Origin: a virus
IMG/VR virus record: IMGVR_UViG_3300027969_005288
Location: 1-47,916 of that record
Direction: 5' to 3' (one strand)
DNA: 47,916 nucleotides
The notes under the pieces are model-generated. The model was not told where the DNA came from, did no database searches, and saw nothing but the letters and a program-made list of their open reading frames with translations. Positions 3,635 to 47,111 of the stretch are shown here, in pieces; the stretch's first letter is position 1; each line of letters starts with the position of its first letter. The position numbers were made by a program, and so were the translations under genes.

Positions 3635-3639
3635 ATTTT

Positions 3640-3655: not shown

Positions 3656-3669
3656 TTTATATATTAAAT

Positions 3670-4736: not shown

Positions 4737-7101
4737 TTAATGATTGTATTTTTTTAATTGCTTTAATAACTTGATAAGATCCTATCATCTTGGTACATTC
4801 AAATTGCCTTGGTGTACCTTTATGATCTGGACACCAATTCCAATCACCAGCATTTAGTCTATATCTATTAAAACAGCTGTTACAAACATCTTTATTAATA
4901 AGTCTAATTACGTTGTCATCTTCAAATTCAGAATAAGTATCACTAAAACCTGAAATTAATATTACCGGTACATCTGTAGCCCATGCCAACCATGATAAGC
5001 CTGAACCGATACCAATAAAAAAGTCAGAATGTTTAATTTCATTAATTCTGTCATGTATAGAAATTTTACCAGGCTTATGAAAAATATTCTTTGGATGATT
5101 ATTTCCCATGTATCCATTTTCTTCTGAAGAAATAAGAACTATTCTGTACCCTTCATCTCTTAAAAAATCTACTACGTCTTGCCATCCTGATGAATTATTC
5201 CAATATTTAGCTTGAGAACTTGCATGTATTGCAATAGTAACATATTTTTTATTATCAAATGGATGTGAATCTTCAGGTATTGTAATTTTAGGTTTTTTAT
5301 ATGAAAATGGAAGACCTAAAATATCAGTTGCAGTATTTTGCATTGGGATACTTCTAAAATTTGCAGGATGCATATTAGAATTAAAAATATCTGAGTCTTC
5401 TTTATAAAACCAACCTATTCTGAAAGCAGCATATAGATCTGGTGCAATTTCACCTTTATTTATGAATTCAATTTCAGGGTATTGATCTTTAAATATTTCA
5501 TTATAAAATGTAGAAACAATTACATGAGCTTCTTTTTCTATTCTAAAAATTTCACTATGCGGAAACCATGCTAAATTATCTCCTAATGATGAAGATTCTA
5601 ATGAAATAAAAACTCTTTTATTTTTTACATCAAAAATATGTTCCCATATAATTTCAGAGTCGTCCATAATAAGTATATGCCAATCATTCCACCATTTTCT
5701 ATTAGATCTTGCCCATTCACCAGGCGCTAATGTAGTTTCATATACAGTATGGTTAGTTTTTCTATCATTAAAAAGAACTTTAAACCTTTTTTTACCTTTA
5801 CCATGAATTTCTACATAAGGGCCATCAACAAAGTGAGTAGTGACAAAATCAATAACAGTATTATCTTCTATAGAATCTCTATCTGTTTTTATTTGCAATA
5901 ATGCAGTTTTACCAGAAATAGCAGAATTTTCCCATGTAAAAGTATTTCTAATATATTCAGATTCAACAAGTGAATTAGTTTTTACTATTTCATAGTTATC
6001 TTTTGCATATCTCATTACATTTTTCAGATCTTCAAAATCAGGATCTGCATAATTGCCTGGAAAATTAGGCCCTAGTTTTTTTTCATAGCCTAATGCAGCA
6101 GAAGATTCTCCTTTAATTTTAACAGGAAGACCTTTACCTTCTGCAAATTCAAGTTGAGCACCCCAGTTACTATATATAGAAGGCGTACCTGCAGCCATAG
6201 CTTCAATAAGAGGGATATTCCAACCTTCACTTCTAGCACATGATACAAAGCAATGCCCAGATTGTAAATACCTAAGATATTTTAATCTATTGACAAATCC
6301 AATAGAAACTATTCGGTCATCGTCAAATCCGTATTCTTTGATTCTATCTATTGCAGTTTTATTATCTCCAGCAAAATGATTTTCAGCAGATATTATCATG
6401 CGTACTTTTTCATCAGGCTTAAATTCTTCTAAAAACGCATTAATAATTTCAGGTAAACATTTTCTATAGTCCCATCTTCCAAAAAAAATAAAATTAAAAT
6501 ACTCATCTCTAAAATATTCTATTGGATGAAATTCTTTTTCATAAAAGTTCATTGGAACTATTTCAGAATTGACAGCTTCTCTTACAATAAAAATTTTAGA
6601 TTCTGATACACCTTGTTTTATCAAACATTGTTTATGCCATTCAGTAACAACCCAAACTTGATCAAATTTACATTTAAGTATTTCTATAAAATCTTGAGAA
6701 AGTTCAGTACTTTCCCATACAGTATATGCTATTCTATATAAAATTCCAGGATAAGGAGAATCTTCTCTGAAAAAATAATGTTCATTATCAATTAAAATTA
6801 TTTCTATTTCTGGATTAAAATCAAGTCCTGAGTTTTTCCAATTATGTTTTTTAAAAAATTCATGGGTATGAAAATCAAAAAGCTTAGGTCCGTTAGTATC
6901 TCGTAATACTATTTTCCACAAAAGTTCTTTATCTATTTCATTTAAGTATAAATCATAGTTTTCATCCCAAGTGTAATTTATTATTCTTAGATCTATGCCA
7001 TCTTGTCTGGATAAAGCTCTAAAAAAATTACGAGCATGTGCAGCATAACCTGTAGTTCCTAAATAACATGTTTTTGCAATAATTTTTAAGTCATTTATCA
7101 T
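4714..7101 (-). CDS. Two-domain glycosyltransferase: GT4-like plus TibC-like heptosyltransferase domain
   Basis: At 795 residues it joins two GT-B enzymes. The N-terminal half has GT4 hallmarks: FFGRWDYRKCLPEI near residue 205 and SEGWNIPLIEAMAAGTPSI near residue 290, the region that holds the nucleotide-sugar donor. From about residue 490 the sequence resembles the autotransporter O-heptosyltransferase (TibC/BAHT) family, with SLGDNLAWFPHSE, a GIGSGLSWLAWATDVPV donor loop and a late four-cysteine cluster (CNSC, WNWCP, QFEC) like the iron-binding finger of that family. TibC-type enzymes glycosylate serines on repetitive surface proteins. The gene lies upstream of the Ser/Thr-rich fibre in the same direction. 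A lipopolysaccharide or other acceptor remains possible. Confidence 0.75.
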   Translation of the reverse strand: MINDLKIIAKTCYLGTTGYAAHARNFFRALSRQDGIDLRIINYTWDENYDLYLNEIDKELLWKIVLRDTNGPKLFDFHTHEFFKKHNWKNSGLDFNPEIEIILIDNEHYFFREDSPYPGILYRIAYTVWESTELSQDFIEILKCKFDQVWVVTEWHKQCLIKQGVSESKIFIVREAVNSEIVPMNFYEKEFHPIEYFRDEYFNFIFFGRWDYRKCLPEIINAFLEEFKPDEKVRMIISAENHFAGDNKTAIDRIKEYGFDDDRIVSIGFVNRLKYLRYLQSGHCFVSCARSEGWNIPLIEAMAAGTPSIYSNWGAQLEFAEGKGLPVKIKGESSAALGYEKKLGPNFPGNYADPDFEDLKNVMRYAKDNYEIVKTNSLVESEYIRNTFTWENSAISGKTALLQIKTDRDSIEDNTVIDFVTTHFVDGPYVEIHGKGKKRFKVLFNDRKTNHTVYETTLAPGEWARSNRKWWNDWHILIMDDSEIIWEHIFDVKNKRVFISLESSSLGDNLAWFPHSEIFRIEKEAHVIVSTFYNEIFKDQYPEIEFINKGEIAPDLYAAFRIGWFYKEDSDIFNSNMHPANFRSIPMQNTATDILGLPFSYKKPKITIPEDSHPFDNKKYVTIAIHASSQAKYWNNSSGWQDVVDFLRDEGYRIVLISSEENGYMGNNHPKNIFHKPGKISIHDRINEIKHSDFFIGIGSGLSWLAWATDVPVILISGFSDTYSEFEDDNVIRLINKDVCNSCFNRYRLNAGDWNWCPDHKGTPRQFECTKMIGSYQVIKAIKKIQSLNEIKKGI

Positions 7102-17671: not shown

Positions 17672-19106
17672 TGCTTAGATTTATTCCTGCGTGTTTTTGT
17701 CCTTTAGCTTTAATTGGATTAAAATTTTTATCAACGCTTTTAACTGAAACTAGAGTAAATTCCTTATCAGGATTTATAACAATTCCTGCTTTTTCCATAA
17801 ATTTTCTATTTACTAAGAATGGAGTGCTTTTAATTTGTCTATCTACAGGACTAATAGGCACATCTTCAAAAGTTTTTCCTGCAAAAAAGATATTCATATA
17901 TATAATAGGACGTTTTTCTATAATATCACCTACTTCTGTTTCAGAATAGCCAACTATTTTATTTTTATATGTTTTATTCTTTAATGTCCATTTGCATAAA
18001 TTGCCATCTATTTCTACATGATCAACATGCATTGAACAACTTTTAGAACCGTTGCCTGTATCAAATTTTGCTACAAATTCACCTACTCCTTCAACTTCAA
18101 TAATTTCTCTAAACCCTGTTTCAACTCTTTCTATTTTCCAATTTTTCTTATCTTCTAGAAAAGATACGAGTTGATCAGACATTGAAATTCCAGTTGTTTT
18201 TTCAATACCTTCAATACCAGGTGAACTATTTACTTCTAACACATAAGGCTTTCCTGTTTTTTTATCAATAATAATATCAACACCACACCAGATACAACCT
18301 ACAACGGAAGCAGCTTTTTTTGCAACTTCAATAATTTCTTCACTTAATTTTACTTTTTGAGTAGTAGCACCTAATGAGAAATTAGTTCTAAAATCTTTCT
18401 TTACTTTATTTCTTCTCATAGCTCCAATGATTGAAGCTTCTTTAGAATTAACTAAAACATGAATTCTTAAATCATAGTCAGAAGAAATCATTTCCTGTAT
18501 TAAAATTTCTGCCTTATTATCTAATTTTCTAATTGTCTGGTATACTGATTTTAGAGAAGAATATGAATCTACGACCGATACACCTATTCCTTGAGTACCA
18601 CTTAAAAGTTTTATAACTAATGGAAATTTACCACCAATTTGTTTTAAGGCCTTATCAATAGCTTCTTCATCAGGTAATAAAGTAGTTCTTGGAACAGGTA
18701 TACCATTATTACTTAATTGCATTGTAGTAAGATACTTATTTTCACAAATTTCCATTGATTCTAGACTGTTTATACAGAAAAAATTATTTTTTTCTAATTG
18801 AAAAATAATATTCTTCGTATGAGTACCTTCTAACACTCCTCTTCTTGATAAAATTACGGTATTGTCTCTGCTTAAAGAAGGTCCTTTTTTATTTTCATTT
18901 AAAAATTGAAAAAGTCCATTGTCTAGAGATTTAATTGTTAATTTTAAAGGTTCGAAACAATATACATTAAATCCTTTTTTTGTAGCCGAAGATTTAATTT
19001 TTTTAACAGTATTATTTTCAATATCATTGCTTAATATAACTAAATTATTACTATTGTTATCACTGTTATTTTCATTTACAAAATCCCAAAATTCATATAT
19101 TTTCAT
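17664..19106 (-). CDS. RimK ATP-grasp ligase fused to a RimB-like retropepsin-fold protease
   Basis: Residues 90-310 are a RimK ATP-grasp domain: FPLVIKLLSGTQGIGVSVVD, DLRIHVLV, and EVNSSPGIEGIE at 291. From about 330 a second domain matches the RimB/ATP-dependent zinc protease family, with the aspartic-protease-like FVAKFDTGNGSKS (DTG at 349-351) and VNRKFMEKAGIVINP near the end. RimK polymerises glutamate onto ribosomal protein S6 and RimB modulates it, so a writer/trimmer of amino-acid tails is inferred. The N-terminus MKIYEFWDFVNEN resembles a capsid-targeting leader ending VNE. It starts 21 bases after the 121-residue gene. The fold calls are firm; the target is unknown. Confidence 0.85.
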   Translation of the reverse strand: MKIYEFWDFVNENNSDNNSNNLVILSNDIENNTVKKIKSSATKKGFNVYCFEPLKLTIKSLDNGLFQFLNENKKGPSLSRDNTVILSRRGVLEGTHTKNIIFQLEKNNFFCINSLESMEICENKYLTTMQLSNNGIPVPRTTLLPDEEAIDKALKQIGGKFPLVIKLLSGTQGIGVSVVDSYSSLKSVYQTIRKLDNKAEILIQEMISSDYDLRIHVLVNSKEASIIGAMRRNKVKKDFRTNFSLGATTQKVKLSEEIIEVAKKAASVVGCIWCGVDIIIDKKTGKPYVLEVNSSPGIEGIEKTTGISMSDQLVSFLEDKKNWKIERVETGFREIIEVEGVGEFVAKFDTGNGSKSCSMHVDHVEIDGNLCKWTLKNKTYKNKIVGYSETEVGDIIEKRPIIYMNIFFAGKTFEDVPISPVDRQIKSTPFLVNRKFMEKAGIVINPDKEFTLVSVKSVDKNFNPIKAKGQKHAGINLSNE

Positions 19107-27185: not shown

Positions 27186-28540
27186 TAATTTAGTTTTGAT
27201 TTTAATTCATTTAAATCTTTACGATACATTTCTTTAATGTTTGCATTTTCTATATCAGTAAGTTCTATATTTTTTATATCTACTTTTTCCAACAAATCAT
27301 TATATTTTTCAAGAGTAAGCGAATATATTGCCATATTTAAAAGATAATTATAAGAATTATCAACTTGATCAAATTTCTGAGAAGTTAATGTTTCTATAAT
27401 TTTATCCCTAGAAACTTTATTTATTTCAATCTTTTTTTCAATAATACCTCTAATAAATCTAGCTCTGTTAGAAAGAATCATCAATTCTTTCTGTAGCTTA
27501 TTTATCATGTAATCTTTCCTTTTTTGGTAGTATTCTAATCTAAAATTTACAAAATACCTAACTATCTCATCCGCTGTATTAAATATCTTTAGTTTTCCAA
27601 ATTCATCTAACACTGTAAGGTTTTCGCTTTCTCTTTCATACATTTTTAATGTATCTTCAAGTCTGCCTTTTTCTATAAGATCAGCTAATATTTGTCTTGA
27701 AAATTTTAAAGTATAATTAACACGGCCTGCTGAATTATCTTCATAGCTTGATAGAATTCCTTTTTCAATCAAAGTATTTAAATGTATTTCATATTTTTCA
27801 TAAGTTTGGCTTGGTGGTATTTCAGTAATTTCTACAGTTGAAGTATTTTTAACTTCAAATAAACCTTTATATAACCAACTTTTTTCACTATCTGCAATTC
27901 TTTCATAAGTACCTGCAAAATGCTTAAGCCACGGCTTTAGTTCTTTTAATTTCTTTTTTTCATTTAATACATCTAAACATGCATTAATAAGATCTAAAGG
28001 ATTTCTATTAAGAACATTAGTAGCAAATCCGACAGCAATACCTGAACTACCATTTAAAAGAATAGTAGGTATAATTGGTAAGAAGAATTTAGGTTCTATT
28101 TCCTCACCTTCTTCAAATTGAGAATTAACGAGTTCAAAATCTTTATATAAAAGTTTAAAATTATTATTTAATTTTACACCAATATAACGAGAAGCTCCAG
28201 CTTCGGGGCTTCTAAGTGAACCAAACTGCCCAATACCTTGAAAAAGTGGCATACTATTTTTAAAATCTTGAGCCATACCTACAATAGCGCCATCTAATGA
28301 CGAGCTACCATGATGATAAAAGGTAGTAGATGCTACAACACCAGCTAATTGAAAAATTTTCATAGGTTTTTCATTACCTGTTTTCCATACGTTATTTGCC
28401 GCATAGATAACCTTTCTCTGGGTTGGTTTAAAGCCATCAATAACTGATGGAATTGCTCTATTTTCAACAACATATTTAGCGTAATCAAGATATTCAGTAT
28501 CAAAAAAATCTTGTACGTCTCTTTTATTTTCAATTGTCAT
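27185..28540 (-). CDS. DNA topoisomerase II medium subunit (T4 gp52/GyrA-ParC-like)
   Basis: The 451 residues (T4 gp52 has 442) match the breakage-reunion domain of GyrA/ParC. DYAKYVVENRAIPSVIDGFK begins the domain and TQRKVIYA follows. FYHHGSSSLDGAIVGMAQDF precedes the catalytic Arg118-Tyr119 in GASRYIGV. GSSGIAVGFATNVLNRNP and a C-terminal coiled region complete the core; the beta-propeller of bacterial GyrA is absent, as in T4. With the large subunit encoded just upstream it should form the phage type II topoisomerase. Its ATG shares a base with the stop of the large-subunit C-part. Confidence 0.93.
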   Translation of the reverse strand: MTIENKRDVQDFFDTEYLDYAKYVVENRAIPSVIDGFKPTQRKVIYAANNVWKTGNEKPMKIFQLAGVVASTTFYHHGSSSLDGAIVGMAQDFKNSMPLFQGIGQFGSLRSPEAGASRYIGVKLNNNFKLLYKDFELVNSQFEEGEEIEPKFFLPIIPTILLNGSSGIAVGFATNVLNRNPLDLINACLDVLNEKKKLKELKPWLKHFAGTYERIADSEKSWLYKGLFEVKNTSTVEITEIPPSQTYEKYEIHLNTLIEKGILSSYEDNSAGRVNYTLKFSRQILADLIEKGRLEDTLKMYERESENLTVLDEFGKLKIFNTADEIVRYFVNFRLEYYQKRKDYMINKLQKELMILSNRARFIRGIIEKKIEINKVSRDKIIETLTSQKFDQVDNSYNYLLNMAIYSLTLEKYNDLLEKVDIKNIELTDIENANIKEMYRKDLNELKSKLN

Positions 28541-29355
28541 TAGAATACTGATTTTATGCTATTGCCTTTTATTGATTTTTTTTCTACTTTTAAAACTTCT
28601 TCAGTTTCAACTTCTTTAGTTTCAACATCTTCAGTTTCAGTTTCTTTAAGACCTAATATTTTTATCTTTCTAGGTGTAGAATCACCTGCAAACCAAGTTT
28701 CTAAAGTACCTTTAAAATTCTTACCTTTTGATAAAATAAAATAATTAGGATTCTGAATAATTTCTTTATATTCATCATTTTCAAGTGCTGCTAGACCTTT
28801 TTTATATTCTATAGACCATTCATCAGGTGACTTCTGGATCTCTCTCCACGTATTATATTCTTTATTTGTATAGAACCATTTCTTATCTTTTCCTTTTTTA
28901 CATACGACCAACGGTGTTACTACTCTGCACATTATATTTTTTTCAAATAGTTCTGGCCAATATTTACCAAAAAAATTAATTAAAAGGCCTGCAATAGAAT
29001 CACCATCAGGATCCGCGTCTGAATAAATAAAAATTTTGCCATATCTAATATCAGTAGGTGGCTCTCCCATTTTTAATCCAATAGATGCAAGAAGACTTTT
29101 AACTTCTTGATTTTGAATAACTTTAGTATTAGGCAGTTCCATAACATTAATAAATTTACCTCTAAGCGGAAATGCACCTTGTATCATAGGATCTCGATGT
29201 TGGCGAAAAGCCGAAGATGCTGAATTATGAGAAACTATACCATTAGATAATGTAAAACTCTTATCGCCTTCTATAGTTAGATCTACTGAATTTTGGTATT
29301 GCGATTCAATTGATATTTCATCAATATCTACCAATTCTATAAAATTTTCTATCAT
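28540..29355 (-). CDS. DNA topoisomerase II large subunit, C-terminal part, preceded by C-intein
   Basis: Residues 1-44 are the C-terminal half of a split intein: NSVDLTIEGDKSF is block F-like, and NGIVSHN is block G ending in His-Asn. Serine 45 is the first extein residue. After it comes SASSAFRQHRDPMIQG and the TOPRIM metal site IYSDADPDGDSIAGLLINFF, as in GyrB and T4 gp39/gp60. Splicing to the upstream half would rebuild EGDSASS. The C-extein is 227 residues; with the 419-residue N-extein the mature subunit would be 646 residues. An acidic tail (TETEDVETKEVETEEV) ends the protein. It overlaps the endonuclease gene stop by 4 bases. Confidence 0.9.
   Translation of the reverse strand: MIENFIELVDIDEISIESQYQNSVDLTIEGDKSFTLSNGIVSHNSASSAFRQHRDPMIQGAFPLRGKFINVMELPNTKVIQNQEVKSLLASIGLKMGEPPTDIRYGKIFIYSDADPDGDSIAGLLINFFGKYWPELFEKNIMCRVVTPLVVCKKGKDKKWFYTNKEYNTWREIQKSPDEWSIEYKKGLAALENDEYKEIIQNPNYFILSKGKNFKGTLETWFAGDSTPRKIKILGLKETETEDVETKEVETEEVLKVEKKSIKGNSIKSVF
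29224..29355 (-). other. Split intein, C-terminal half (topoisomerase)
   Basis: This encodes 44 residues with intein blocks F and G and the terminal His-Asn dipeptide directly before the extein serine. The length is close to the 36-44 residues of classical C-inteins such as DnaE-type split inteins. Confidence 0.88.
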
Positions 29356-30749
29356 ACATTGTGGTTTATAAAATTTATAATTTTGTTAATTATTTCTGAA
29401 TCTACATCAGTATCCCAAACTTCAAAATATAAAAAATCATCAGCAATTGCTCTTTTTCTTTTTAAAATATTTTTTTCTAAAACTGTTTCATAAGATTCTT
29501 TAGAAAAAGCATGTCTCCATTTTAATTTATCTTCATTTAACATATGCGGATGTGGATGAAAAGCAGATCCATTGAATTCTATTATTAATTTTTTTTTATT
29601 TTTATAAAAAATAACAAAATCATAAAAATAATACCTACTATTTTCATTATCATATAAGCCGTACTCTCTATTTAGATCTCCAAAATAAATTTTATCAATA
29701 GCATCAATGTTAATAATTTTTAAAAATTGATATATTATATTAGTAGACCATTTTGAATAGCCTGCTCTTCTATTGCTGCATATTTTTATCCATCTTTGCG
29801 TACCTTCATATTCACCATATTTTTCTATTTGATTTTTTAAAGTTATTTTACATTTATCTTTACGTTTATTTATAATGTCATTAGCTTCGCTAATTGTAAT
29901 ATTATATAATTTTATTAGCTTATAAGGATCAAATATTGTAAATTTTTGCGATTTTTCTTCTAATGAAAGTTTTTCAATATTTTTTTTAAATGTATTACTT
30001 CTTTTTTCTATATAGTTTTGATATAATTTTAATCCTTCTTCATTTCCATATCTTTTTATAAAACTAACTAATCCTTGTTTAGTTTTTTCTATTCTAATTA
30101 AAAAATCATCATTACTATCAAATAGATGTCTTGACATACTATTTTTAGATTTACAATAATTTTCAAATTTAATTCTACCTTCTATTTGACCATGTTTCTT
30201 AATGTAGCCGTCTAGTGATCTAGAATAGTTTTGTTTGTTTAATGTATTTTTATATTTTAAAGCACCTTGTGTTTCGCCATATCTTTTAATAAAGTATGAT
30301 AAATTTCTTGATTGAGACTCTTTATATTCAGTATCATTTTTAAAATTCTCTCTATAAAATGAACTTTTATTGTTATTTTTTATATAAATAAGAGCTTCAT
30401 CGTAAGTAATATCATGCATTATAGAAATGAATTCAGCACTATTTGAATTCATTTTTTTACCAGGGCAATTACTATTAAAACCATAACAATATTGGTAGCC
30501 TTTGTATTTTTTTATTTCTTCTACTGATATTATCTGTAATGATTCATTAAATTTAATTTTAAATCTTATTGGATTTTTACATATTTTACATCTATTTACT
30601 TTAAAATTATTATTTTCTAGAACATTAACCACTTTATCTAATCCATATTTTTTAATTATTTTAGTAGTTATCAACTGTTCAATATTAATTATTGATTTTA
30701 TTGAATTTATTCGATAAGTTAAACCATACACATTAATATTATACTGCAT
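29352..30749 (-). CDS. Freestanding homing-type endonuclease inside the split topoisomerase gene
   Basis: Of 465 residues, the N-terminal 100 include a four-cysteine zinc site (CKIC near 54 and two Cys near 88 and 95). The middle contains four copies of a short DNA-binding-like module: FIKRYGETQGALKYKN, YIKKHGQIEGRIKFEN, FIKRYGNEEGLKLYQN and QIEKYGEYEGTQRW. The C-terminus has a VSR/EDxHD-like nuclease core, YDFVIFYKNKKKLIIEFNGS with nearby FHPHPH, and ends VWDTDVDSEIINKIINF. The same family sits in the split terminase locus. It is not fused to either intein half: it starts 19 bases after the N-part stop and overlaps the C-part start by 4. Homing into intein-free topoisomerase genes is inferred. 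Confidence 0.8.
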   Translation of the reverse strand: MQYNINVYGLTYRINSIKSIINIEQLITTKIIKKYGLDKVVNVLENNNFKVNRCKICKNPIRFKIKFNESLQIISVEEIKKYKGYQYCYGFNSNCPGKKMNSNSAEFISIMHDITYDEALIYIKNNNKSSFYRENFKNDTEYKESQSRNLSYFIKRYGETQGALKYKNTLNKQNYSRSLDGYIKKHGQIEGRIKFENYCKSKNSMSRHLFDSNDDFLIRIEKTKQGLVSFIKRYGNEEGLKLYQNYIEKRSNTFKKNIEKLSLEEKSQKFTIFDPYKLIKLYNITISEANDIINKRKDKCKITLKNQIEKYGEYEGTQRWIKICSNRRAGYSKWSTNIIYQFLKIINIDAIDKIYFGDLNREYGLYDNENSRYYFYDFVIFYKNKKKLIIEFNGSAFHPHPHMLNEDKLKWRHAFSKESYETVLEKNILKRKRAIADDFLYFEVWDTDVDSEIINKIINFINHNV

Positions 30750-30768
30750 TTTTGATTTTTTGAAGGTA

Positions 30769-32511
30769 CTAATTATATATTATCAAATCAGTGATTTTTA
30801 TATCATTAGCTTCTTTTAAATCAAAAATTTCTTCATCTGTTGAATATATTGCCATTTTGTGATTTAATGTAGATACTATTCTTGAATCATCAGTAATAAA
30901 TATAATCTCATTTTTTTCTCTTTTTATTTTTTTAATGATTGACGCCTTAGTAATAGTTTGCATTTTATTTCTAACTAACTTATGAATAGTTAAATTTAAA
31001 TCTTTGCATTTTACCCATATAAAAGAATCTTTTTCTGTATCATATACATAGAATCTATGTTCTGCGCTTGCTTTAATACTGCCATATTTAGTTTTTATTT
31101 CTAAAAGTTTAGAAATTTTAGAAGTTTTAGCTATAATTTTTCTAATTCTATTTTCATGAGTTAATACATGTTGTCCTATTTCGGCATTTTTAATTTCAAT
31201 ATCATTTTTACCATTTTCATCAAATACTGTTATTAATGTAGATTCATGTAAACAATCACCTTCAAAGATAGCTAGTGAGCATTTTTCCCTATTGTCTTTA
31301 GATTTTGCATCAATTAATTTAATAATTTTTGTTTTATCTAAGAATTTATTTAATGCTCTTAACTGCTTTCTTTCATCTGCTAATTTTTTTTCTTGAATCC
31401 AATCTAGAAGTTGTTTAATAATTTCAGAGTTAAAAACTAATTTTAAGATATTTTCTGAAACTTCATGATAAGATCCAAAATCTTTAGGTTCTGTAATTAA
31501 TTTTTCTTTTGTTTGAGAAGAAAATCCTGAATTGACAATAGAAGCTTCTACAAATAAAAACATGTGATTTTTAAGCTCAGATGGTTTTACTTCTACTTTA
31601 TATTTTTTCTTTATTTTTTCTCTTAGCCATTGAGTAATTTGATGTAATACATATTCAACATGAGTTCCACCATCTTTAGTTTCTACTGAATTAACAAATG
31701 ATACTTGCTGAAATCCATCCTCTGATAATCCAATACCAATTTTCCATCTATCACTTTCTTCATAAAAAACATCATTAATATAATATTTAGTATAATCCTT
31801 AAAAGATTTAAAAATAAAAGATTCTCCATTACAGCCTACTTGCAATTTAGGATTGCATGCAGCTGCATCTATTACTCTTTTTTTCATTAGAGCAAAATGA
31901 ATTTGATCTATTGAAGTCATACTAAATCTTTCTAAATCAGGGATATATGATATTTCAGTATAACCTTTAGATCCTTCACCTATTTTAGCATTTTCTCTTT
32001 CATGCATATTATTGGTAAAAACTTGTTCAAAAGTCTTTTTACCGTCACATGTTTTAATTTTAAATTCTTTAGAAAAAATATTAGTTAATGTTGCACCTAC
32101 TCCATTAGTACCTGCTACTAATCGTTCTTCCGAATCATCAAAATTAGATCCTGTTTTTAAACTAGAAAAAAGTAATTCGGGTATCCATTCATCATATTCT
32201 TTATGTTTTTGAACAGGAATACCTCCATTATCCCATATAGTAATTATTCCTTTTTCTATATCAATAGTAACTTCAATTTTATTGAGTTTTGGATTTCTTT
32301 TATGTTCATCTACAGAATTAGAAATAATTTCATCAAAGATTTTTAAAAAAGCTGGATTATAAGTAACTTGAACTTTTTCAAATTGATTTTTACTATCCAA
32401 CAAGAAAACTTCAGAATTATGCATTTTAATAGAACCTACATACATGCCTGGGCGTGTAAGACAATGTTCTACGTCTGATAATCTTTTATACTTCTGTTCT
32501 ACAGATTTCAT
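30769..32511 (-). CDS. DNA topoisomerase II large subunit, N-terminal part, followed by N-intein
   Basis: Residues 1-419 are the GHKL ATPase and transducer domains of GyrB/T4 gp39: LTRPGMYVGS, the Asn-containing IISNSVDEHKRN, TIWDNGGIPV, and the ATP-lid VAGTNGVGATLTNIF. The extein ends LAIFEGD, the first half of the TOPRIM EGDS motif. Cysteine 420 begins a 161-residue N-intein (CLHESTLITVF). The chain then stops, so it cannot work alone unless trans-splicing joins it to the part encoded at 28540-29355. A TGAAAC-class promoter stands 17 bases upstream of the start. An SSR-like ATTAAAATG start context lacks a Shine-Dalgarno. Confidence 0.92.
   Translation of the reverse strand: MKSVEQKYKRLSDVEHCLTRPGMYVGSIKMHNSEVFLLDSKNQFEKVQVTYNPAFLKIFDEIISNSVDEHKRNPKLNKIEVTIDIEKGIITIWDNGGIPVQKHKEYDEWIPELLFSSLKTGSNFDDSEERLVAGTNGVGATLTNIFSKEFKIKTCDGKKTFEQVFTNNMHERENAKIGEGSKGYTEISYIPDLERFSMTSIDQIHFALMKKRVIDAAACNPKLQVGCNGESFIFKSFKDYTKYYINDVFYEESDRWKIGIGLSEDGFQQVSFVNSVETKDGGTHVEYVLHQITQWLREKIKKKYKVEVKPSELKNHMFLFVEASIVNSGFSSQTKEKLITEPKDFGSYHEVSENILKLVFNSEIIKQLLDWIQEKKLADERKQLRALNKFLDKTKIIKLIDAKSKDNREKCSLAIFEGDCLHESTLITVFDENGKNDIEIKNAEIGQHVLTHENRIRKIIAKTSKISKLLEIKTKYGSIKASAEHRFYVYDTEKDSFIWVKCKDLNLTIHKLVRNKMQTITKASIIKKIKREKNEIIFITDDSRIVSTLNHKMAIYSTDEEIFDLKEANDIKITDLIIYN
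30772..31254 (-). other. Split intein, N-terminal half (topoisomerase)
   Basis: This encodes 161 residues. Block A is CLHESTLITVF. Block B is KASAEHRFYVY (S-x-x-H). A second, similar hairpin follows about 60 residues later (VSTLNHKMAIYSTDEE, T-x-x-H), so the block B region appears duplicated. Classical N-inteins are about 100-125 residues; the excess equals the extra hairpin. Confidence 0.85.
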
Positions 32512-39627: not shown

Positions 39628-42600
39628 TTAAACTTGACCACTTGATATTTGGCCAGGTCTAAGTATAGTTGTTCGTGTTACAAGAATTTCCATTCCTTTT
39701 ACCGGTTCGACAAAGGTATCTAAAATACCTATATTTCTTTCAATAATATCAGGAGTGTTATTAGTTTCATCCATAACATTCCTAAAATTATAAACACCAT
39801 TTTCTGCTTGTACAGTAGCCATAAAATTATCTGCTAGAGTTTTAATTTCTAATCGTGTTTGAGCTGTATTAAATTCAAAAAGATAATTTTTCAAAATTGC
39901 AGATAAACCGTCCTGTATATAAATCATAACTTCTCTTACGTGAGCAGATGATAATGCGCTTTGTACATTTTGTTGAGCTGTTTTATTGGCAAATATTACC
40001 AAACCTGTGCCGTTTTGAAAAATAATTGGATTAAGACCGAATGGTTCAATATTATCTCTATCAGATTTATCATAATTATATTCAACACCAATAACTCCTC
40101 GACCTCCAACGATACCGCGTCTATTACCTGCAATAATTGACCAAGGCAGTGCATTAGTATATTTATCAATATAATTGTTAGAAACATACCCAGCAGGTGG
40201 TACCTGGATATTAGATCCATTTTCTCTTACAGTAAGAAAAGGCGTATAAAATGCTCCATAACTAGAACCTTGAGTAATTCCAGGTAAGGTATACCTAACA
40301 GTAGGGTTTTTAGAAAGATTTCCACCATTTGCAACGTATGCAGTATCAAACTGGCCTAACAGATTTAAAAAACTTGGGTCTGTGCTCTTTTTAAAATTAT
40401 CAACCGAAGGTGCATTTACTAATGCAAATGCATTTTGTCTCTCCTTAGCAAGGGTAAAAAATATTGATTTTGAATTTGCTTCTATCCCATTAGCCCAAGT
40501 ATCAACAATATATCTATAAGAAATATTATCTTTATCAATAAGAGCTTGAAACAGTTTAGTACCTCCTAAAGTATCATATAAAATATTATTCTGCTGTTCA
40601 TTAGTACCATTTGGTAAATTATATGAGCCAAGTGGAAATCCATCGAGTGTAAAAATATTATAATAATCAACCCATTCAGTAATAGGTGTATATGACTCTA
40701 CAGTCTCGACCGAATCTATGGTTCTAATAAGAATAGGCCCTTCGCATATAATCTTAAGAGCATTTACACCTGGTGTAAAATTACTAATTCCTATAACTTC
40801 TTTAATATAGGTAAGTCTAGATGAAACTGTAGAAGATCCTACATTTTGTAATAAATATTTACCTACTGCAACATATACTGAGCTGCTAGATGATACAATT
40901 ACTTCATTTTGTTTTAAAAGAGAACCAGGAGTTCCACTATATTCAAGTACATTTATACTATTATTAAGAGAACCTTTATACGATTGAATACCTAATGTAC
41001 CTTGAGAATATGCAGTATCACTAGTATCAAAGAAATACTTTCCAGTCTGATTAATTCCAAAATCTACATCATCTACAATTAAGTCATTAAAATCAGCATC
41101 AGCAAATGCATTAATAATAAAAGTTGGAATATTATATGTGCTATCAGAAATTTCTATTTTAGTTGGAGTTCCTGAAAGATTATAGATTAAATATGAATAT
41201 GATAATGGATTAAAATCTAAATATAATATCTGAGAAGCTCCAATGGTTGATCCAAATACTGCTTTATCGCCATCTGTCAATGTACCGTTTGAAATATCTG
41301 AATATAGTTGAGAAGATAATCCGCATATAATAGTTCCAGTGTCACCGTTATCATCTCTCTGAGTGACCCAATCCATATCTAATACTTTAATATATTTAAG
41401 CGTAGAAAGTCCATCAAATGGAGTATCTCCAGCACCTAAAGTAATATCAGCACCTGATACTGTAACTAAAGTATAGCTTGAAGTAACAGTTACGTCAATT
41501 ACTGGAATTGCTAAATCATCACCTGCATTAATAAGAAAATCACCTACTGTACCGGTTGAATTAGCTTTTAAATTCTTAAAAACATTATAAGCAGCAGATG
41601 CGCTTGATGCAGATGCTAATAAATCAAAACTACCATCAGTATTAACTGTTAAAGTTACGCCTGTAAGACTCACCGACCTTAAATTGGTTGAATTTTCTGT
41701 ATAATCTAGATCTGATGCAATAGTAGCTTTATAAGATAAAAAATCAATCGTTTTAGGATTGACCCTTTCTAGTTCATGTCCAATAAGATCAAGACCTTTA
41801 TCAGTACCATCTAATAGGTCTCCTAAATCAAACATTGCTTCATTAATAGAACAGAAAAGTCCTGTTGATGGAGTATCTGCATTAATTAAATCTTTAATAT
41901 AAAGATTATTGCCATTAAGATCTGAAAAACCTGGAATAAGAGAGCCTGTATAAATTGATATTAGACTTACTTGAGGTAAATTATTAAATTGTTCTAGATA
42001 TGTATCTGAAGTATCTGTAATTGATACTTTTCTTTTAAGACCACTCTGCTTATCAAAATACTTAGCATAAGTTGGATCTGATGTAAATCTTTCATACGGA
42101 TAAATTGCAGTAGTGTCTGCTCCAAGATTTCCATTATATAGAAATACATCAACCATAAAATCTGATACAAAGCTTTCACCGTTTAAAAAAGCTGGTATAT
42201 TAGCATTACCATACCAATCTTGAACTTTAATTTGAAATCCTTTTGTATTTTCAGGCGCTGCTTTTCTTACTAAGATAGAAACTTGTCTACTTCCAAGATT
42301 AACAATATTAAAAAGATTATTAAATGGGGTAGTGTCTGTTGCGCCAATGTTAGTAAGGAATGCATCAGTACTAGGAAACCAAAACTTATCTTGATTAAAA
42401 TACCCAGAATATAGTGCTTCATTAGTAAAACCTGAATTTGCTTCAGTTGAACTTGCACTAAAAAGGCAAGCTTCATCATAATCTCCACTTCCATCTATAG
42501 CATTATTTAATCTCCAAAGATTTAATGCTAAAATAGGACCTCTTTCTAAAGCTGAAAGACAGCTTCTATGAAAAAAACTCCCTTTTCTTTCATCTATTCT

Positions 42601-42795
42601 ATTAATGTCACCAAATACTGCTCTAAAAAAAGAGGTATCAGGACAAAAAACAGGCGTGTTAAAAGGACCTTTTCTAGAAAAGCCTATAACTAATCTTAAT
42701 TGTTCAGCTGGGATTGAGACAGTTTGACTTTTATCAAATTCTAATCTATAAACTCCGGCTGACCTAAATGCTGCTATTTGCGGACTTAATGCCAT
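39628..42795 (-). CDS. Tail sheath protein (T4 gp18-like), enlarged
   Basis: The N-terminal region matches gp18: VIGFSRKGPFNTPVFCPDTS, then FGDINRIDERKGSFFHRS. The C-terminal third contains the conserved core (VPPAGYVSNNYIDKYTNALP, GLNPIIFQNGTGLVIFANKT) and the polymerising end, with FVEPVKGMEILVTRTTILRP. At 1055 residues it exceeds T4 gp18 (659) by about 400. The extra material lies roughly between residues 300 and 750 and looks like beta-rich Ser/Thr/Asp inserts, probably surface domains on the contracted tail. It contracts to drive the tube into the cell. A terminator follows. The identification is secure. Confidence 0.92.
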   Translation of the reverse strand: MALSPQIAAFRSAGVYRLEFDKSQTVSIPAEQLRLVIGFSRKGPFNTPVFCPDTSFFRAVFGDINRIDERKGSFFHRSCLSALERGPILALNLWRLNNAIDGSGDYDEACLFSASSTEANSGFTNEALYSGYFNQDKFWFPSTDAFLTNIGATDTTPFNNLFNIVNLGSRQVSILVRKAAPENTKGFQIKVQDWYGNANIPAFLNGESFVSDFMVDVFLYNGNLGADTTAIYPYERFTSDPTYAKYFDKQSGLKRKVSITDTSDTYLEQFNNLPQVSLISIYTGSLIPGFSDLNGNNLYIKDLINADTPSTGLFCSINEAMFDLGDLLDGTDKGLDLIGHELERVNPKTIDFLSYKATIASDLDYTENSTNLRSVSLTGVTLTVNTDGSFDLLASASSASAAYNVFKNLKANSTGTVGDFLINAGDDLAIPVIDVTVTSSYTLVTVSGADITLGAGDTPFDGLSTLKYIKVLDMDWVTQRDDNGDTGTIICGLSSQLYSDISNGTLTDGDKAVFGSTIGASQILYLDFNPLSYSYLIYNLSGTPTKIEISDSTYNIPTFIINAFADADFNDLIVDDVDFGINQTGKYFFDTSDTAYSQGTLGIQSYKGSLNNSINVLEYSGTPGSLLKQNEVIVSSSSSVYVAVGKYLLQNVGSSTVSSRLTYIKEVIGISNFTPGVNALKIICEGPILIRTIDSVETVESYTPITEWVDYYNIFTLDGFPLGSYNLPNGTNEQQNNILYDTLGGTKLFQALIDKDNISYRYIVDTWANGIEANSKSIFFTLAKERQNAFALVNAPSVDNFKKSTDPSFLNLLGQFDTAYVANGGNLSKNPTVRYTLPGITQGSSYGAFYTPFLTVRENGSNIQVPPAGYVSNNYIDKYTNALPWSIIAGNRRGIVGGRGVIGVEYNYDKSDRDNIEPFGLNPIIFQNGTGLVIFANKTAQQNVQSALSSAHVREVMIYIQDGLSAILKNYLFEFNTAQTRLEIKTLADNFMATVQAENGVYNFRNVMDETNNTPDIIERNIGILDTFVEPVKGMEILVTRTTILRPGQISSGQV

Positions 42796-42839
42796 TTTTT
42801 ATTTTTTTTTATATTATATATATAGATTTTATTTATTTT

Positions 42840-44717
42840 TTAAATAAGATCATATATGTCAAAATACATAGCACCTTCATCTTTTGATTTTAATAAAATT
42901 TCATCCATCACTTTCTGTACATTAGGATCTACTAAATCAAATTTTTCTTCTACAAAATCAGAAAAATCAAGCGTATGAAAAAATTCAGTTGCATTTATAC
43001 TTGACATTACTAAATCATCACATCCTAATTGCCCTTGATATTTACCGCTAGATGATTTACCAAAACTAATACACTCTTCAATAGTATTTTTATTATAAAG
43101 CCGTATTTTGCCCATACTTATATATTTTTTAAAATTTTGACAAAATATTGTTTTATTATCTGATTTTAATTTTAGCCCAAAACTTGAAGTTTTAGCATCA
43201 TTTCGATGTTTAAATTTTACAACCATTTCTTCATCAAAATCATTTCTAGATGGAAATATAGTTTGTAATCTTCTAATTAATTCTGAACCAAACATATTCC
43301 ATTCTATTATAAGTTTTACATTTTCATTATTGAAAATATCAATAGATATTGTATATAAAATTTTACTAAAATCTTCTATACTATGAGTATTGCTCTGAAA
43401 AATAGCAATTTGTTTTAAACCGAAAAAGTCTATAAAACTACCTGGTGATTTTACTTTTTTAATATCACTTATATTCATTGGCTCGATAGAAAAAATATTA
43501 ATTACTGAATAGTCACCACCACCACCTTCTGCTATATCTACAGAAAATGCCCAATAATTATTTAAATTTTCTATTTGAGAAATATCAAAATCAGGATCCC
43601 ATACAAGGGCACTATAATTAATTTCTAAATCATCAAGCTCGATAAATTCATGATGTATAAAATCTTTTTGTTTTTTTTGTAATTTTTTTATAGATTCAGG
43701 GCCTAATAAAAGATTAGAACTTGCAATAAATTGATTTCCATATTGTCTATTAAATGCTTCCTCTGATCCTAAATTAGAAATTTCTCTATACATCCATGCC
43801 TCATCTCGGCCTACTACTTGCCACCAATCTACCCTATATGGGCGGTATTCATTTTTATTGTGAACTGCATTTTTATAAATATCATAGAATTTATTAAAGC
43901 CATTAGGAGTACTAGTAATAATAACTCTAGATATTTTAGATGAAGATATAGTAGGATATACGTTTTCATAAAAACTATCTAAAAAACTTGAATGTATATG
44001 AGCAAATTCGTCCATAAATAGTAAATGAATAGTAAAACCGATTGCAGCTTTTTTACTAGTATTTAAACCAATAATACGACAACCATTATCAAATTTCATA
44101 TTAAATACATCATTTTTAAGAACACCTGGCTTCATAAAAAAAGGTAAATTATCTAAAATAACTTTTGCTTTATCTATGATTTCTCTAGTAGTTGAACCTT
44201 TATTAGAAAGAACAAGAGCATTTCTATCAAAATTAAAAAGAATATACCATGCTATATAAATAGATGAGCATATCGTATTATGAGAAAGTATGTCATTTGA
44301 ATAGAAACGATGACCAGGATGATTCACAGTCACATCATACATTTCGATATGCAAAGAAGTTTTTTCTAATTTAACAATTTTTTCTGGACCATCTTTAGTC
44401 ATAATAAAAGTCCCTTCTTTACAATTTTTTAAATAAACTTCATCTATTTTCTCATTAAATAGAATATGTGTATCAGCACCTTCTAATTTTTTACCAGACA
44501 GAGTTTCTATTTTCCAAACATCAAAAGGTTTAGTTTTATGAATATGTGTAATAGGTTGATAACCTGAATCAGTTTTTATTGAAAGTCCTTTAATATCTAA
44601 AGTTTCCTGTATTTTATCTAAAAGATTTGATTGATCTAGAAAAGACTTGTCTTTATTTTCAATCTTTTCTATTAGTTGAATCAAAAAAAGAATAATATAT
44701 CTTAAACCTATACGCAT
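42840..44717 (-). CDS. Terminase large subunit, C-terminal part, preceded by long C-intein
   Basis: Residues 1-147 are the C-intein: a hydrophobic opening helix (GLRYIILFLIQLIEKI), a block B-like GADTHILF, block F MYDVTVNHPGHRFY and block G NDILSHN. Thr148 is the first extein residue, and TICSSIYIAWYILFNF continues the ATPase domain. Walker B is HLLFMDEFAHIH and motif III is ITSTPNGF. The C-terminal nuclease domain has SVDIAEGGGDYSVINIF and later acidic residues. The 478-residue C-extein plus the 129-residue N-extein gives 607, nearly the 610 of T4 gp17. It packages DNA at the portal. It overlaps the endonuclease gene by 10 bases. Confidence 0.92.
   Translation of the reverse strand: MRIGLRYIILFLIQLIEKIENKDKSFLDQSNLLDKIQETLDIKGLSIKTDSGYQPITHIHKTKPFDVWKIETLSGKKLEGADTHILFNEKIDEVYLKNCKEGTFIMTKDGPEKIVKLEKTSLHIEMYDVTVNHPGHRFYSNDILSHNTICSSIYIAWYILFNFDRNALVLSNKGSTTREIIDKAKVILDNLPFFMKPGVLKNDVFNMKFDNGCRIIGLNTSKKAAIGFTIHLLFMDEFAHIHSSFLDSFYENVYPTISSSKISRVIITSTPNGFNKFYDIYKNAVHNKNEYRPYRVDWWQVVGRDEAWMYREISNLGSEEAFNRQYGNQFIASSNLLLGPESIKKLQKKQKDFIHHEFIELDDLEINYSALVWDPDFDISQIENLNNYWAFSVDIAEGGGGDYSVINIFSIEPMNISDIKKVKSPGSFIDFFGLKQIAIFQSNTHSIEDFSKILYTISIDIFNNENVKLIIEWNMFGSELIRRLQTIFPSRNDFDEEMVVKFKHRNDAKTSSFGLKLKSDNKTIFCQNFKKYISMGKIRLYNKNTIEECISFGKSSSGKYQGQLGCDDLVMSSINATEFFHTLDFSDFVEEKFDLVDPNVQKVMDEILLKSKDEGAMYFDIYDLI
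44277..44717 (-). other. Split intein, C-terminal half (terminase), unusually long
   Basis: This encodes 147 residues, including the block B histidine that normally belongs to the N-half, so the split point is early. It starts with a hydrophobic, basic-ended helix not seen in classical C-inteins and ends in the canonical Ser-His-Asn before threonine. Confidence 0.87.
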
Positions 44718-45829
44718 AAAAATTCTTTACATTTGTTTATTATTTCCTCTGGGTTTTTATACCAGTCCGATTCCCATATTACTAAGACTTGGTAATCATG
44801 TTCTTCTGCTTTTTCTCTTTTAATCCTGTCATAATCCCATATTTCTTGCGCTGTCATCTTTTTTACTTTATGAAAATAATCAGATTTAAATTTTTGAGGA
44901 TTGCAATGCCAAAAATCTCCATTGAATTCAATGATCTTTTTAGATTTAATAAAAACCAAATCATATTTATATGCTCTTTTTAGTTCTTTATCCCGGATGA
45001 ATTTTTCGTTGGATCCTCTTTTTACGTCATCGGTAAAAATAGAACATATTACATCAAAGAATTTTTCTGAAACATTACTTCTACCTCTTCCGATCCATTG
45101 ATCTTCATTAAAGACTTTAGCTTTCCAATTCTTTCGTCTCTCTTCCCATTTTTCTTTTCCTAATTCTTCACCGTATTTATTTTGAAAAAAAGAAAGATCT
45201 CGAGTTTGTAGTTTTGCAATTTCAGCAATAGCTTCTTTGCGAGTCATGCCTTTATCAATCCAGTGCTCAACCTGATTCCAAGTTTTTCTATCTTTTAAAA
45301 AAATATTAACTCTTTCAGAAACCATTTTTGCATATTCATCTTCATGTCTATTCGGAAACCTTTTTCGATAAAACTCTATCGAGAAAGGGCTTGCTTCCTT
45401 TCTCTTCTGTTCAGAAGTTTTAGTATGAGACATTGGATTTTTTTGCCCTTTAATTTTATCCGAAAACATTTTTTTATACTTTTCTTCCTTCATGTGCTTT
45501 CCACCATTAATAGTAGTGGCTTCTCTATCAGAAGAACAATAGAGAGGTGTGTTTGGAAATTCAGCTTTGTACTCGTCAAGAGTTCTATGTGGATGCATAG
45601 ATTTAAACCATTTGCCATAGATTCTCGGGGTAACGTAACTATTCCAAAGATCTATCACATAGTCTACACCTTCAACGCCTTTTAGAAGAGATTCCTGTCT
45701 TTTCTTAAAGTTAAAATCAGATGAACATTTAATAGAACAGAATTTTGAAGTTGCAACTCCAGCCTCGTATCCAGATTTGCAACAAAGACAATTTTTTTGA
45801 AAAGGCGTCCTCTTTATATAATTTTTCAT
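44708..45829 (-). CDS. Freestanding homing-type endonuclease inside the split terminase gene
   Basis: The 373 residues include an N-terminal four-cysteine zinc finger (CLCC near 14-17 and CSIKC near 31-35) and a NUMOD3-like GQKNPMSHTKTSEQKRKEA stretch. One module, FFQNKYGEELGKEKWEE, resembles the repeats of the topoisomerase-locus endonuclease. The C-terminal nuclease core reads YKYDLVFIKSKKIIEFNGDF with a following WHCNP. The end, LVIWESDWYKNPEEIINKCK, parallels VWDTDVDSEIINKI in the other enzyme. It overlaps the N-part stop by 4 bases and the C-part start by 10, so all three genes are translationally linked. It probably spreads the intein by cutting intein-free terminase genes. Confidence 0.8.
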   Translation of the reverse strand: MKNYIKRTPFQKNCLCCKSGYEAGVATSKFCSIKCSSDFNFKKRQESLLKGVEGVDYVIDLWNSYVTPRIYGKWFKSMHPHRTLDEYKAEFPNTPLYCSSDREATTINGGKHMKEEKYKKMFSDKIKGQKNPMSHTKTSEQKRKEASPFSIEFYRKRFPNRHEDEYAKMVSERVNIFLKDRKTWNQVEHWIDKGMTRKEAIAEIAKLQTRDLSFFQNKYGEELGKEKWEERRKNWKAKVFNEDQWIGRGRSNVSEKFFDVICSIFTDDVKRGSNEKFIRDKELKRAYKYDLVFIKSKKIIEFNGDFWHCNPQKFKSDYFHKVKKMTAQEIWDYDRIKREKAEEHDYQVLVIWESDWYKNPEEIINKCKEFLCV

Positions 45830-46374
45830 GCTAATTTAGATAATATTCTATAGAGAATATATTTTATTGTTTCTAAAAAAGTTAATTTTCTTTTCTGTTT
45901 TAGGTATCTAATATAAAGTTCACCGATTGTGACTTTTTCAATAACAGAATCTTTTTCAATTTTTAAGAAAGTTTGTGGAGAAAGACATTTTCCTATTTGC
46001 CTGCTGGCTAAACAGATAGAAAATCTATTAGCTCTAAAATGATCAAGCATATCAAGTTGATAATCTCTAAGCTTAATAGTACTAAGACCTTCATCTGTCA
46101 TTACAGTGCAATAATTATTAGCAAAATAACAGACATCATTTGCACATTTTTTTAATTCTTCAAATTCATGTTTAGTGTAATCAAATAAAATATTACCTTT
46201 TCTTAAGGTAGGATTGCCTTCATAAAAAGGTAGTCCTCCTTTTGGTTTATATCCATCATCTATAGAACTTAATAATTTTTCAATTTTTTCTGTACTCCAT
46301 GATACTCTATCTTCAGAATTTTCAGTACGAGGTACAACAATTTCTACTTCACTATTTTTATATTGTACTGCCAT
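45826..46374 (-). CDS. Terminase large subunit, N-terminal part, followed by short N-intein
   Basis: Residues 1-129 are the N-terminus of a gp17-like terminase: FEELKKCANDVCYFANNYC, then IKLRDYQLDMLDHFRANRFS (adenine-motif region), and SICLASRQIGK, the Walker A motif up to its lysine. Cys130 starts a 53-residue N-intein, CLSPQTFLKIEKDSVIEKV, which ends in a hydrophobic helix (TFLETIKYILYRILSKLA). The chain stops before the Walker A Thr, so ATP binding needs trans-splicing with the part at 42840-44717, which would restore GKT. The start shares a base with the stop of the small subunit gene. Confidence 0.92.
   Translation of the reverse strand: MAVQYKNSEVEIVVPRTENSEDRVSWSTEKIEKLLSSIDDGYKPKGGLPFYEGNPTLRKGNILFDYTKHEFEELKKCANDVCYFANNYCTVMTDEGLSTIKLRDYQLDMLDHFRANRFSICLASRQIGKCLSPQTFLKIEKDSVIEKVTIGELYIRYLKQKRKLTFLETIKYILYRILSKLA
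45829..45987 (-). other. Split intein, N-terminal half (terminase), unusually short
   Basis: This encodes 53 residues with block A only (CLSPQTFLKI, then VTIGELYIRY). The remaining 25 residues are a Lys/Arg-rich turn and an amphipathic helix. Block B is on the other chain. This recalls the early-split terminase intein AceL-TerL described from environmental DNA, whose N-half is about 25 residues. Confidence 0.87.
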
Positions 46375-47111
46375 TATAGTCCAAATTCATTATCATTTTC
46401 ATCAAATTCATTATCATCTACTATATCTTCATCATCGCCATAGTCATCATCATTTCTTTTTATTTTAGCACTTTCAAATGGTGGTTCATATTCTAGTAAA
46501 TTCTTAATTGTGTTTACTTCAGTTTCAGCATCTTCTTCGGTATACTCAGCTCTAATACTTTTCATTAGTTCCTTAGTACCTCTAGAACTAATCATATTAG
46601 AAGATGTATTATTTTTTTCTGAAGATATTACTTTATATTGAGGTTTATAAATATCAATATCTCTACTTAATTTTTTCATATTTTCTTCAGATGCTATAAG
46701 ATACATAGTTTGACTTTTTACTATATCTAAGAGAGTTTTCTGTAGTCCTCCTAGTACTTCAAACATGCGTGGATGCATTTCTCCACTATCAATATTATCA
46801 AGCATTGTAATAATTGCTCTCTCAGCAGCCTCCATTTGAAAAATAAGAGCGCCTAATGACATTTTATCTAACTCTACTCGAGCTTTGATATATTCTTGTT
46901 CTTCAATAATTTCTTCTGATAAATAAAGCTTTAATAATCCATTAATTACTTTTTTTGCTTTAATATATGCATTATTTCTAAGTGTATCGTATGACGTTAC
47001 TGTACGAGATTTTACTAAATCATCTAAACCTTCTTCTTTGATATTTATTTTATCTGGTAAGTCATCATTTAGTAATTCACTAATACTATTTCTTAAATTG
47101 TTTTTTGACAT
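46374..47111 (-). CDS. Terminase small subunit candidate (T4 gp16-like)
   Basis: The 245-residue protein is mostly helical, with a central region MFEVLGGLQKTLLDIVKSQT preceded by MEAAERAIITMLDNIDSG. That pattern is found in gp16-type small terminases of T4-like phages, which form rings that regulate the large subunit. The N-terminal 60 residues are polar, and the C-terminal 45 are very acidic (DDDYGDDEDIVDDNEFDEND). T4 gp16 has 164 residues. It lies directly before the large subunit with a 1-base stop/start overlap, the T4 order. Identification rests on position and helical pattern more than on a defining motif. Confidence 0.75.
   Translation of the reverse strand: MSKNNLRNSISELLNDDLPDKINIKEEGLDDLVKSRTVTSYDTLRNNAYIKAKKVINGLLKLYLSEEIIEEQEYIKARVELDKMSLGALIFQMEAAERAIITMLDNIDSGEMHPRMFEVLGGLQKTLLDIVKSQTMYLIASEENMKKLSRDIDIYKPQYKVISSEKNNTSSNMISSRGTKELMKSIRAEYTEEDAETEVNTIKNLLEYEPPFESAKIKRNDDDYGDDEDIVDDNEFDENDNEFGL

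What the first reader, a model, noticed from the sequence alone, without database searches (positions are those of the whole stretch)
42840..46374. Terminase large subunit split by a trans-splicing intein exactly after the Walker A lysine
Seen in the sequence: one gene ends its extein at SRQIGK and continues with an intein block A beginning with Cys. A second gene carries intein blocks ending SHN, followed by TICSS and the rest of a terminase. Joining the exteins (129 + 478 residues) gives 607 residues with an intact GKT motif. Packaging would depend wholly on trans-splicing, so an essential ATPase is kept inactive until two proteins meet.
Basis: partly seen in the sequence, partly recalled or inferred. 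Interest (0 to 1): 0.9.

Follow-up and report, generated by a model that had tools for sequence, protein, structure and literature searches.

The report
Packaging motor gene broken by split intein
In this phage the gene for the DNA-packaging motor is broken in two by a self-splicing protein element, with a DNA-cutting-enzyme gene lodged in the break, so the motor almost certainly has to be rejoined as protein; it is a new example of a known arrangement, found here to be widespread in relatives.

Summary
All on the minus strand: 45826-46374 encodes 129 TerL residues ending SRQIGK plus a 53-aa IntN starting with Cys; 42840-44717 encodes a 147-aa IntC ending SHN, then TICSS and 478 TerL residues. 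Joined: 607 aa with Walker A SRQIGKT. This is a 'fractured gene', a known phage arrangement (split intein plus free-standing homing endonuclease). Close relatives (80-82% identical) have the uninterrupted gene at exactly this codon. The same intein sits there in 49 distinct TerLs: 29 split with a Vsr-like endonuclease between, 15 split without an intact one (several keep its 3' stub; in a 735-kb phage the halves lie 12.4 kb apart), 5 contiguous. Both halves stay under purifying selection after endonuclease loss. The window holds a second fractured gene, topoisomerase II large subunit (28540-32511), broken at EGD|SA. Splicing and homing were not tested. New member of a known kind, with another TerL insertion site and longer IntN than the described AceL/GOS-TerL inteins.

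The parts
45988..46374 (-). TerL N-extein, 129 aa, ends SRQIGK (Walker A up to the Lys)
   Evidence: phrog_5989 TerL E=9e-25 on the N-half ORF; aligns to intact TerL of L006-L010 at 76-79%
45829..45987 (-). IntN, 53 aa, Cys1; ORF stop at 45826-45828
   Evidence: leave-window-out IntN profile E=6e-15; same position and Cys1 in all 44 split relatives
44708..45829 (-). Vsr-like putative homing endonuclease, 373 aa, free-standing ORF in the break; overlaps N-half by ATGA (45826-45829) and C-half by 10 nt (44708-44717)
   Evidence: NCBIfam vsr E=0.0027, below cut-off; phrog_22677 7e-17; Foldseek Vsr 1cw0 prob 1.00 and I-Bth0305I 3r3p prob 0.99, E 0.017 and 0.12
44277..44717 (-). IntC, 147 aa, ends SHN; first residue after it is Thr(+1)
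   Evidence: leave-window-out IntC profile E=1.8e-50; profile matches gp41-1, CatC, VidaL and NrdJ-1 inteins in the PDB
42843..44276 (-). TerL C-extein, 478 aa (rest of ATPase, then nuclease domain); stop at 42840-42842
   Evidence: Pfam Terminase_6N 1e-13; T4 gp17 3ezk E=5e-30; 80-82% to intact TerL of L006-L010
30772..32511 (-). second fractured gene, topo II large subunit N-half: 419-aa extein ending EGD (31255-32511) and 161-aa IntN starting CLHES (30772-31254)
   Evidence: phrog_543; Pfam DNA_gyraseB and Intein_splicing; exact empty site in L157-L177
29352..30749 (-). second endonuclease of the same family, 465 aa, in the topo II break
   Evidence: profile of the first endonuclease family (window copy included) 1.5e-61; 31% to the first over its C-terminal part
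28543..29355 (-). topo II large subunit C-half: 44-aa IntC ending SHN (29224-29355) and 227-aa extein starting SASSA (28543-29223)
   Evidence: phrog_543 and Toprim; exact empty site in L157-L177

Best explanation
A T4-type terminase large-subunit gene has been invaded at its Walker A codon (GK|T) by a class 1-type intein that is now naturally split, with a Vsr-like homing-endonuclease gene lodged in the break: a 'fractured gene'. Inferred working: the two precursors (129 aa + IntN; IntC + 478 aa) associate, fold into one HINT domain and splice through Cys1, the C-terminal Asn and Thr+1 to give a 607-aa TerL with an intact P-loop. The break falls in the turn of a predicted two-helix insertion, so each half would keep one helix as a docking arm. 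The endonuclease would spread the cassette into uninterrupted TerL alleles during co-infection; when it is lost, the gene stays split and depends on trans-splicing. Shown: sequence anatomy, exact empty site, homologous contiguous and split states, selection on both halves, endonuclease decay; predicted HINT fold of a contiguous relative. Inferred: splicing, homing, docking helices.
For: Exact junctions and intact ORFs. Empty site at the same codon in close relatives, one from the same metagenome as an occupied copy. Same intein at the same site in 49 TerLs, 29 with the endonuclease between, 15 split without an intact one, 5 contiguous; Cys1 and Thr+1 invariant in the 44 split loci. Contiguous forms in cultured phages Kuja and 3M. 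LR756501 halves 12.4 kb apart with opposite-strand genes between, so no single transcript or frameshift can join them. Endonuclease stubs or frameshifts with IntN/IntC dN/dS 0.10/0.17. HINT fold of the contiguous relative L018. No known intron family in the locus.
Against: No direct evidence of splicing or of DNA cutting. Family scores of the endonuclease lie below curated cut-offs and its Foldseek E-values are weak. The search for a co-conversion tract was inconclusive. Three relatives (L002, L003, L053) lack the usual penultimate His and L002 the terminal Asn.
Confidence: 0.92

Rival explanations
1. The split is a control device: TerL activity is deliberately delayed until both halves accumulate late in infection, and this benefit maintains it.
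For: Split forms persist, with selection on both intein halves, after the endonuclease is lost or moved away. That is compatible with a benefit, but equally with the split being hard to undo.
Against: Close relatives do without it; at least 5 empty/intein changes on the tree; similar elements in topo II and other ATPases; a nuclease gene in the break. In the window the halves are adjacent and overlapping, so probably made together.
Confidence: 0.05
2. The halves work unspliced as a two-chain terminase, or the locus is a dead copy backed up by an intact terminase elsewhere in the genome.
For: A phage ribonucleotide reductase split by a homing endonuclease is reported to work as two peptides (described in PMC10448857). 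The window is only part of its genome. Huge-phage relatives have a second, shorter terminase-like ORF.
Against: The break lies inside the P-loop between Lys and Thr with intein segments still attached. C-exteins of split relatives show dN/dS about 0.01. The second ORFs in LR756500 and LR756501 lack the Walker A Lys (SRQMGIS, SRQMGIT) and are only 270 and 390 aa.
Confidence: 0.03
3. The halves are joined at the RNA or decoding level (intron, frameshift or ribosome bypass), not by protein splicing.
For: The ORFs overlap by a few bases and the endonuclease could in principle sit in an intron.
Against: No Rfam match in 42500-47000. Both halves carry conserved intein blocks, useless if RNA were spliced. 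In L003 12.4 kb with opposite-strand genes separates the halves; in L210 the endonuclease between them runs the other way.
Confidence: 0.01

Closest known systems
Fractured genes (Dassa et al. 2009, Nucleic Acids Res. 37:2560; paper not held, content from my own knowledge; later examples AceL NrdHF in PMC7891396, PolB of phage MIJ3 in PMC6892783)
   Same: Conserved phage gene broken in two by a split intein with a free-standing endonuclease gene in between; Vsr-like endonuclease in many cases.
   Different: Host gene is terminase at Walker A; the break is near the intein's N-terminal side (IntN 53, IntC 147), not the canonical position.
AceL-TerL and GOS-TerL split inteins (described in PMC11766414, PMC13014065), engineered consensus Cat (PDB 6DSL)
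   Same: Split inteins of phage TerL with a short IntN, broken after the first helix (S2 position, PMC13014065); the IntC profile matches CatC at 4.7e-8.
   Different: GOS-TerL has Ser1/Cys+1 (PMC11766414), here Cys1/Thr+1, so the insertion site in TerL differs. IntN is 25 (AceL) and 37 (GOS) aa there, 53 here because of an added helix.
Contiguous TerL inteins of Ackermannviridae (Vibrio phage Kuja, Serratia phage 3M)
   Same: Same TerL codon (GK|T), homologous intein.
   Different: One uninterrupted ORF; no endonuclease recognised.
Vsr repair endonuclease and I-Bth0305I (EDxHD nucleases)
   Same: C-terminal nuclease domain: Foldseek prob 1.00 and 0.99; weak NCBIfam vsr match.
   Different: Long N-terminal part with a Cys-rich start, presumably DNA-binding; sequence scores below curated cut-offs.

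Membership tests
Fractured gene (Dassa type) | conserved gene broken in two ORFs at one point, intact homologs without the break | tested here: met
Fractured gene (Dassa type) | N and C parts of one intein at the break | tested here: met
   leave-window-out profiles; contiguous homologs L018, L230, L238, Kuja, 3M
Fractured gene (Dassa type) | free-standing endonuclease gene between the halves | tested here: met
   ORF 44708-45829, Vsr-like by fold and weak sequence matches
Fractured gene (Dassa type) | splices in trans | not testable with these tools
   needs co-expression
Class 1 intein | Cys or Ser at position 1; terminal Asn with penultimate His; Cys/Ser/Thr at +1 | tested here: met
   Cys1, His146-Asn147, Thr+1 in the window; Cys1 and Thr+1 in all 44 split relatives
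Class 1 intein | block B Thr-x-x-His | tested here: inconclusive
   His invariant in the IntC alignment, but the Thr position is Ala (GADTHILF; Ala invariant in A2)
Class 1 intein | HINT fold | tested here: met
   predicted model of contiguous relative L018, pLDDT 88.7, best matches VidaL, Mvu TFIIB, RadA, gp41-1 inteins; window's own two-chain complex not modelled
AceL/GOS-TerL group | same insertion site in TerL | tested here: not met
   +1 is Thr of GKT here; GOS-TerL has Cys at +1 (PMC11766414)
Vsr-like homing endonuclease | Vsr/EDxHD nuclease fold with conserved acidic and His residues | tested here: inconclusive
   S251, D290, E301, G304, H308, P311 invariant in 31 relatives; Foldseek prob 0.99-1.00 but E 0.017-0.12
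Vsr-like homing endonuclease | cuts the intein-less TerL allele and drives homing | not testable with these tools
   only indirect: patchy distribution, empty and occupied alleles in one sample

The most novel reading that the evidence does not exclude
In this phage group fracture of the packaging ATPase acts as a ratchet: once an endonuclease breaks the intein, the endonuclease decays but the split stays, the halves can drift apart (12.4 kb in a 735-kb phage), and obligate trans-splicing becomes a fixed step of virion assembly, perhaps later gaining a timing role.
Probability: 0.3. Interest if true: 0.7.

Novelty: new member of a known kind. Interest (0 to 1): 0.5.

Why it matters
It suggests that trans-splicing of the packaging motor at its Walker A motif is common in T4-type and huge phages, not a curiosity. 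It gives a series of states (empty, contiguous, split with endonuclease, split with endonuclease stub, halves far apart) on which the origin and persistence of split inteins can be tested. It also offers many candidate natural split inteins with an unusual split point, and warns that annotation will halve or miss TerL, a standard phage marker gene.

Tried and rejected
Co-conversion tract around the insertion: relatives too diverged, no trend, inconclusive. Known RNA family (group I intron) in the locus: none. Promoters/terminators: promoter-like sites not above shuffles; two terminator-like sites, both on the + strand, opposite to the genes. Second TerL in the window: none. First endonuclease alignment failed on wrong frames and was redone. 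Aligning IntN fragments together with IntC rows misplaced them, so IntN was handled by its own profile. A first leave-window-out IntC profile run on whole six-frame strings gave no hit; rerun on stop-to-stop stretches it gave E=1.8e-50. The N-half scan of viral contigs found only 3 loci. Dassa 2009, Bachmann & Mootz 2015, Stevens 2018 and Aranko 2014 are not held, so statements about Dassa 2009 rest on my own knowledge and citing papers.

Full report
What is there. On the minus strand, between a gene with a weak terminase-small-subunit match (46374-47111) and a tail-sheath gene (39628-42795), lie three tightly packed ORFs. The first (45826-46374) matches T4-type TerL over its N-terminal part and ends SRQIGK followed by a 53-aa stretch beginning with Cys. 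The third (42840-44717) starts with 147 aa ending SHN and continues TICSS... as T4 gp17-type TerL. ORFs 1 and 2 overlap by ATGA; ORFs 2 and 3 by 10 nt. Joined exteins: 129 + 478 = 607 aa, Walker A restored.

It is not chance or an artefact. Profiles built only from relatives pick out IntC (E=1.8e-50) and IntN (E=6e-15) as the sole hits among 526 open stretches of the window. Two other contigs carry the same locus almost unchanged. Relatives 80-82% identical over the C-extein (L006-L010) encode an uninterrupted SRQIGKTICSS at the same codon; one of them (L009) comes from the same metagenome, 3300010885, as an occupied copy (L005).

Family picture. A scan with the IntC alignment found 508 related stretches in IMG/VR, of which the best 80 were fetched. 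Among loci in hand, 49 distinct TerLs have both halves identified: 29 split with a Vsr-like endonuclease between, 15 split without an intact Vsr-like one in the same orientation, 5 contiguous. Contiguous forms include the cultured Vibrio phage Kuja and Serratia phage 3M, annotated simply as terminase. In the 44 split loci Cys1 and Thr+1 are invariant (junctions were located by profile end plus motif, which favours regular ends); the terminal Asn is missing once (L002, Gln) and the penultimate His three times (L002, L003, L053). IntN is 42-72 aa in all. The same intein family is also found in other genes that, judged by eye from the downstream sequence, look like P-loop ATPases broken at the same motif: gp46/SbcC-like proteins, DnaB-like helicases and a clamp loader; I did not confirm those upstream halves.

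Decay of the endonuclease. In L012/L028, L023/L053, L195, L196, L199, L201, L206 and L237 the gap between the halves holds only what looks like the 3' end of the endonuclease; the clearest is L023, whose N-half runs into ELDWNKDPKQTLKKCIKFLND, the tail of L025's endonuclease. L011's endonuclease is frameshifted, L185's truncated, L210's lies on the opposite strand, and in L187, L220 and L231 a different phage homing endonuclease (phrog_3339, E=1e-88 to 1e-100) takes the place. IntN and IntC nevertheless show dN/dS of 0.10 and 0.17 between L011 and L012, both without a working endonuclease in the gap. In the 735-kb phage LR756501 the halves lie 12.4 kb apart with opposite-strand genes and no recognised endonuclease between. 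These cases leave protein trans-splicing as the only plausible way to a whole TerL. No second full-length TerL was found in LR756500 or LR756501; the extra terminase-like ORFs there lack the Walker A Lys.

Evolution. On a 115-row TerL tree (quick method, several long branches) the window lineage (row L004) is nested in a supported group of empty-site relatives; the fewest changes are 5 for empty/intein, 4 for contiguous/split and 12 for endonuclease presence. This fits gain and loss of a mobile element. Whether contiguous forms are ancestral or re-fused is not settled.

Structure and mechanism. The contiguous L018 intein models as a HINT domain (pLDDT 88.7; matches VidaL, RadA, gp41-1, GyrA inteins). 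Residues 37-51 and 54-68 are two helices, and the break in relatives falls between them, after the first helix of the core, the position that PMC13014065 calls S2 for AceL-TerL and GOS-TerL. I infer that these helices, hydrophobic in the window (TFLETIKYILYRILSKLA and IILFLIQLIEKIEN), dock the halves. The endonuclease model resembles Vsr and I-Bth0305I with high probability but weak E-values.

Second fractured gene. The topo II large subunit in the same window is broken at EGD|SA into 30769-32511 and 28540-29355 with a 465-aa endonuclease of the same family between. Here IntN is 161 aa and IntC 44 aa, the canonical type. Relatives L157-L177 are uninterrupted at that residue; LR756500 is fractured there too, with a different middle ORF. 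Two split inteins with different split points must then work side by side.

Comparison. The arrangement is that of fractured genes (Dassa 2009, own knowledge; examples in PMC7891396 and PMC6892783). TerL split inteins are known (AceL, GOS; PMC11766414), but GOS-TerL has Cys at +1, so it sits elsewhere in TerL. Fragmented TerL genes are also mentioned for Jug phages (PMC12363816), where group I introns are the main cause named. I found no held paper describing the Walker A TerL family; most subscription papers are not held.

Verdict. Observation confirmed; trans-splicing strongly supported by comparative evidence; the proposed control role unsupported; new member of a known kind.

Noticed in passing
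window 28540-32511: Second fractured gene: topo II large subunit broken at EGD|SA with a canonical split intein (161 + 44 aa) and a 465-aa endonuclease of the same family in the break.
   Followed up: partly
L003 (LR756501.1) 3227-5494 and 17866-18411: TerL halves 12.4 kb apart in a 735-kb phage, with genes on both strands and no recognised endonuclease between.
   Followed up: yes
L002 3333-4145 and L253 855-2027: Both huge phages carry a second, shorter terminase-like ORF whose Walker A lacks the Lys (SRQMGIS, SRQMGIT) and which has no nuclease part.
   Followed up: partly
L252 (LR756500.1 165000-170500): Fractured topo II large subunit with a different (HNH-looking) middle ORF; its topo II medium subunit also seems to carry an IntN at FYHHGD|CGDYDT.
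   Followed up: partly
L209: TerL with two inteins, one at Walker A (SHN|SITSV) and one before Walker B (SHN|CIFLDEF).
   Followed up: no
L203, L213, L214, L225, L245, L246, L114, L117, L129, L023 start: IntC of the same family in other genes that look like gp46/SbcC, DnaB-like helicase and clamp loader, each starting right after the intein with T or S.
   Followed up: partly
L210, gap between TerL halves: Vsr-like endonuclease gene on the strand opposite to the TerL halves.
   Followed up: partly
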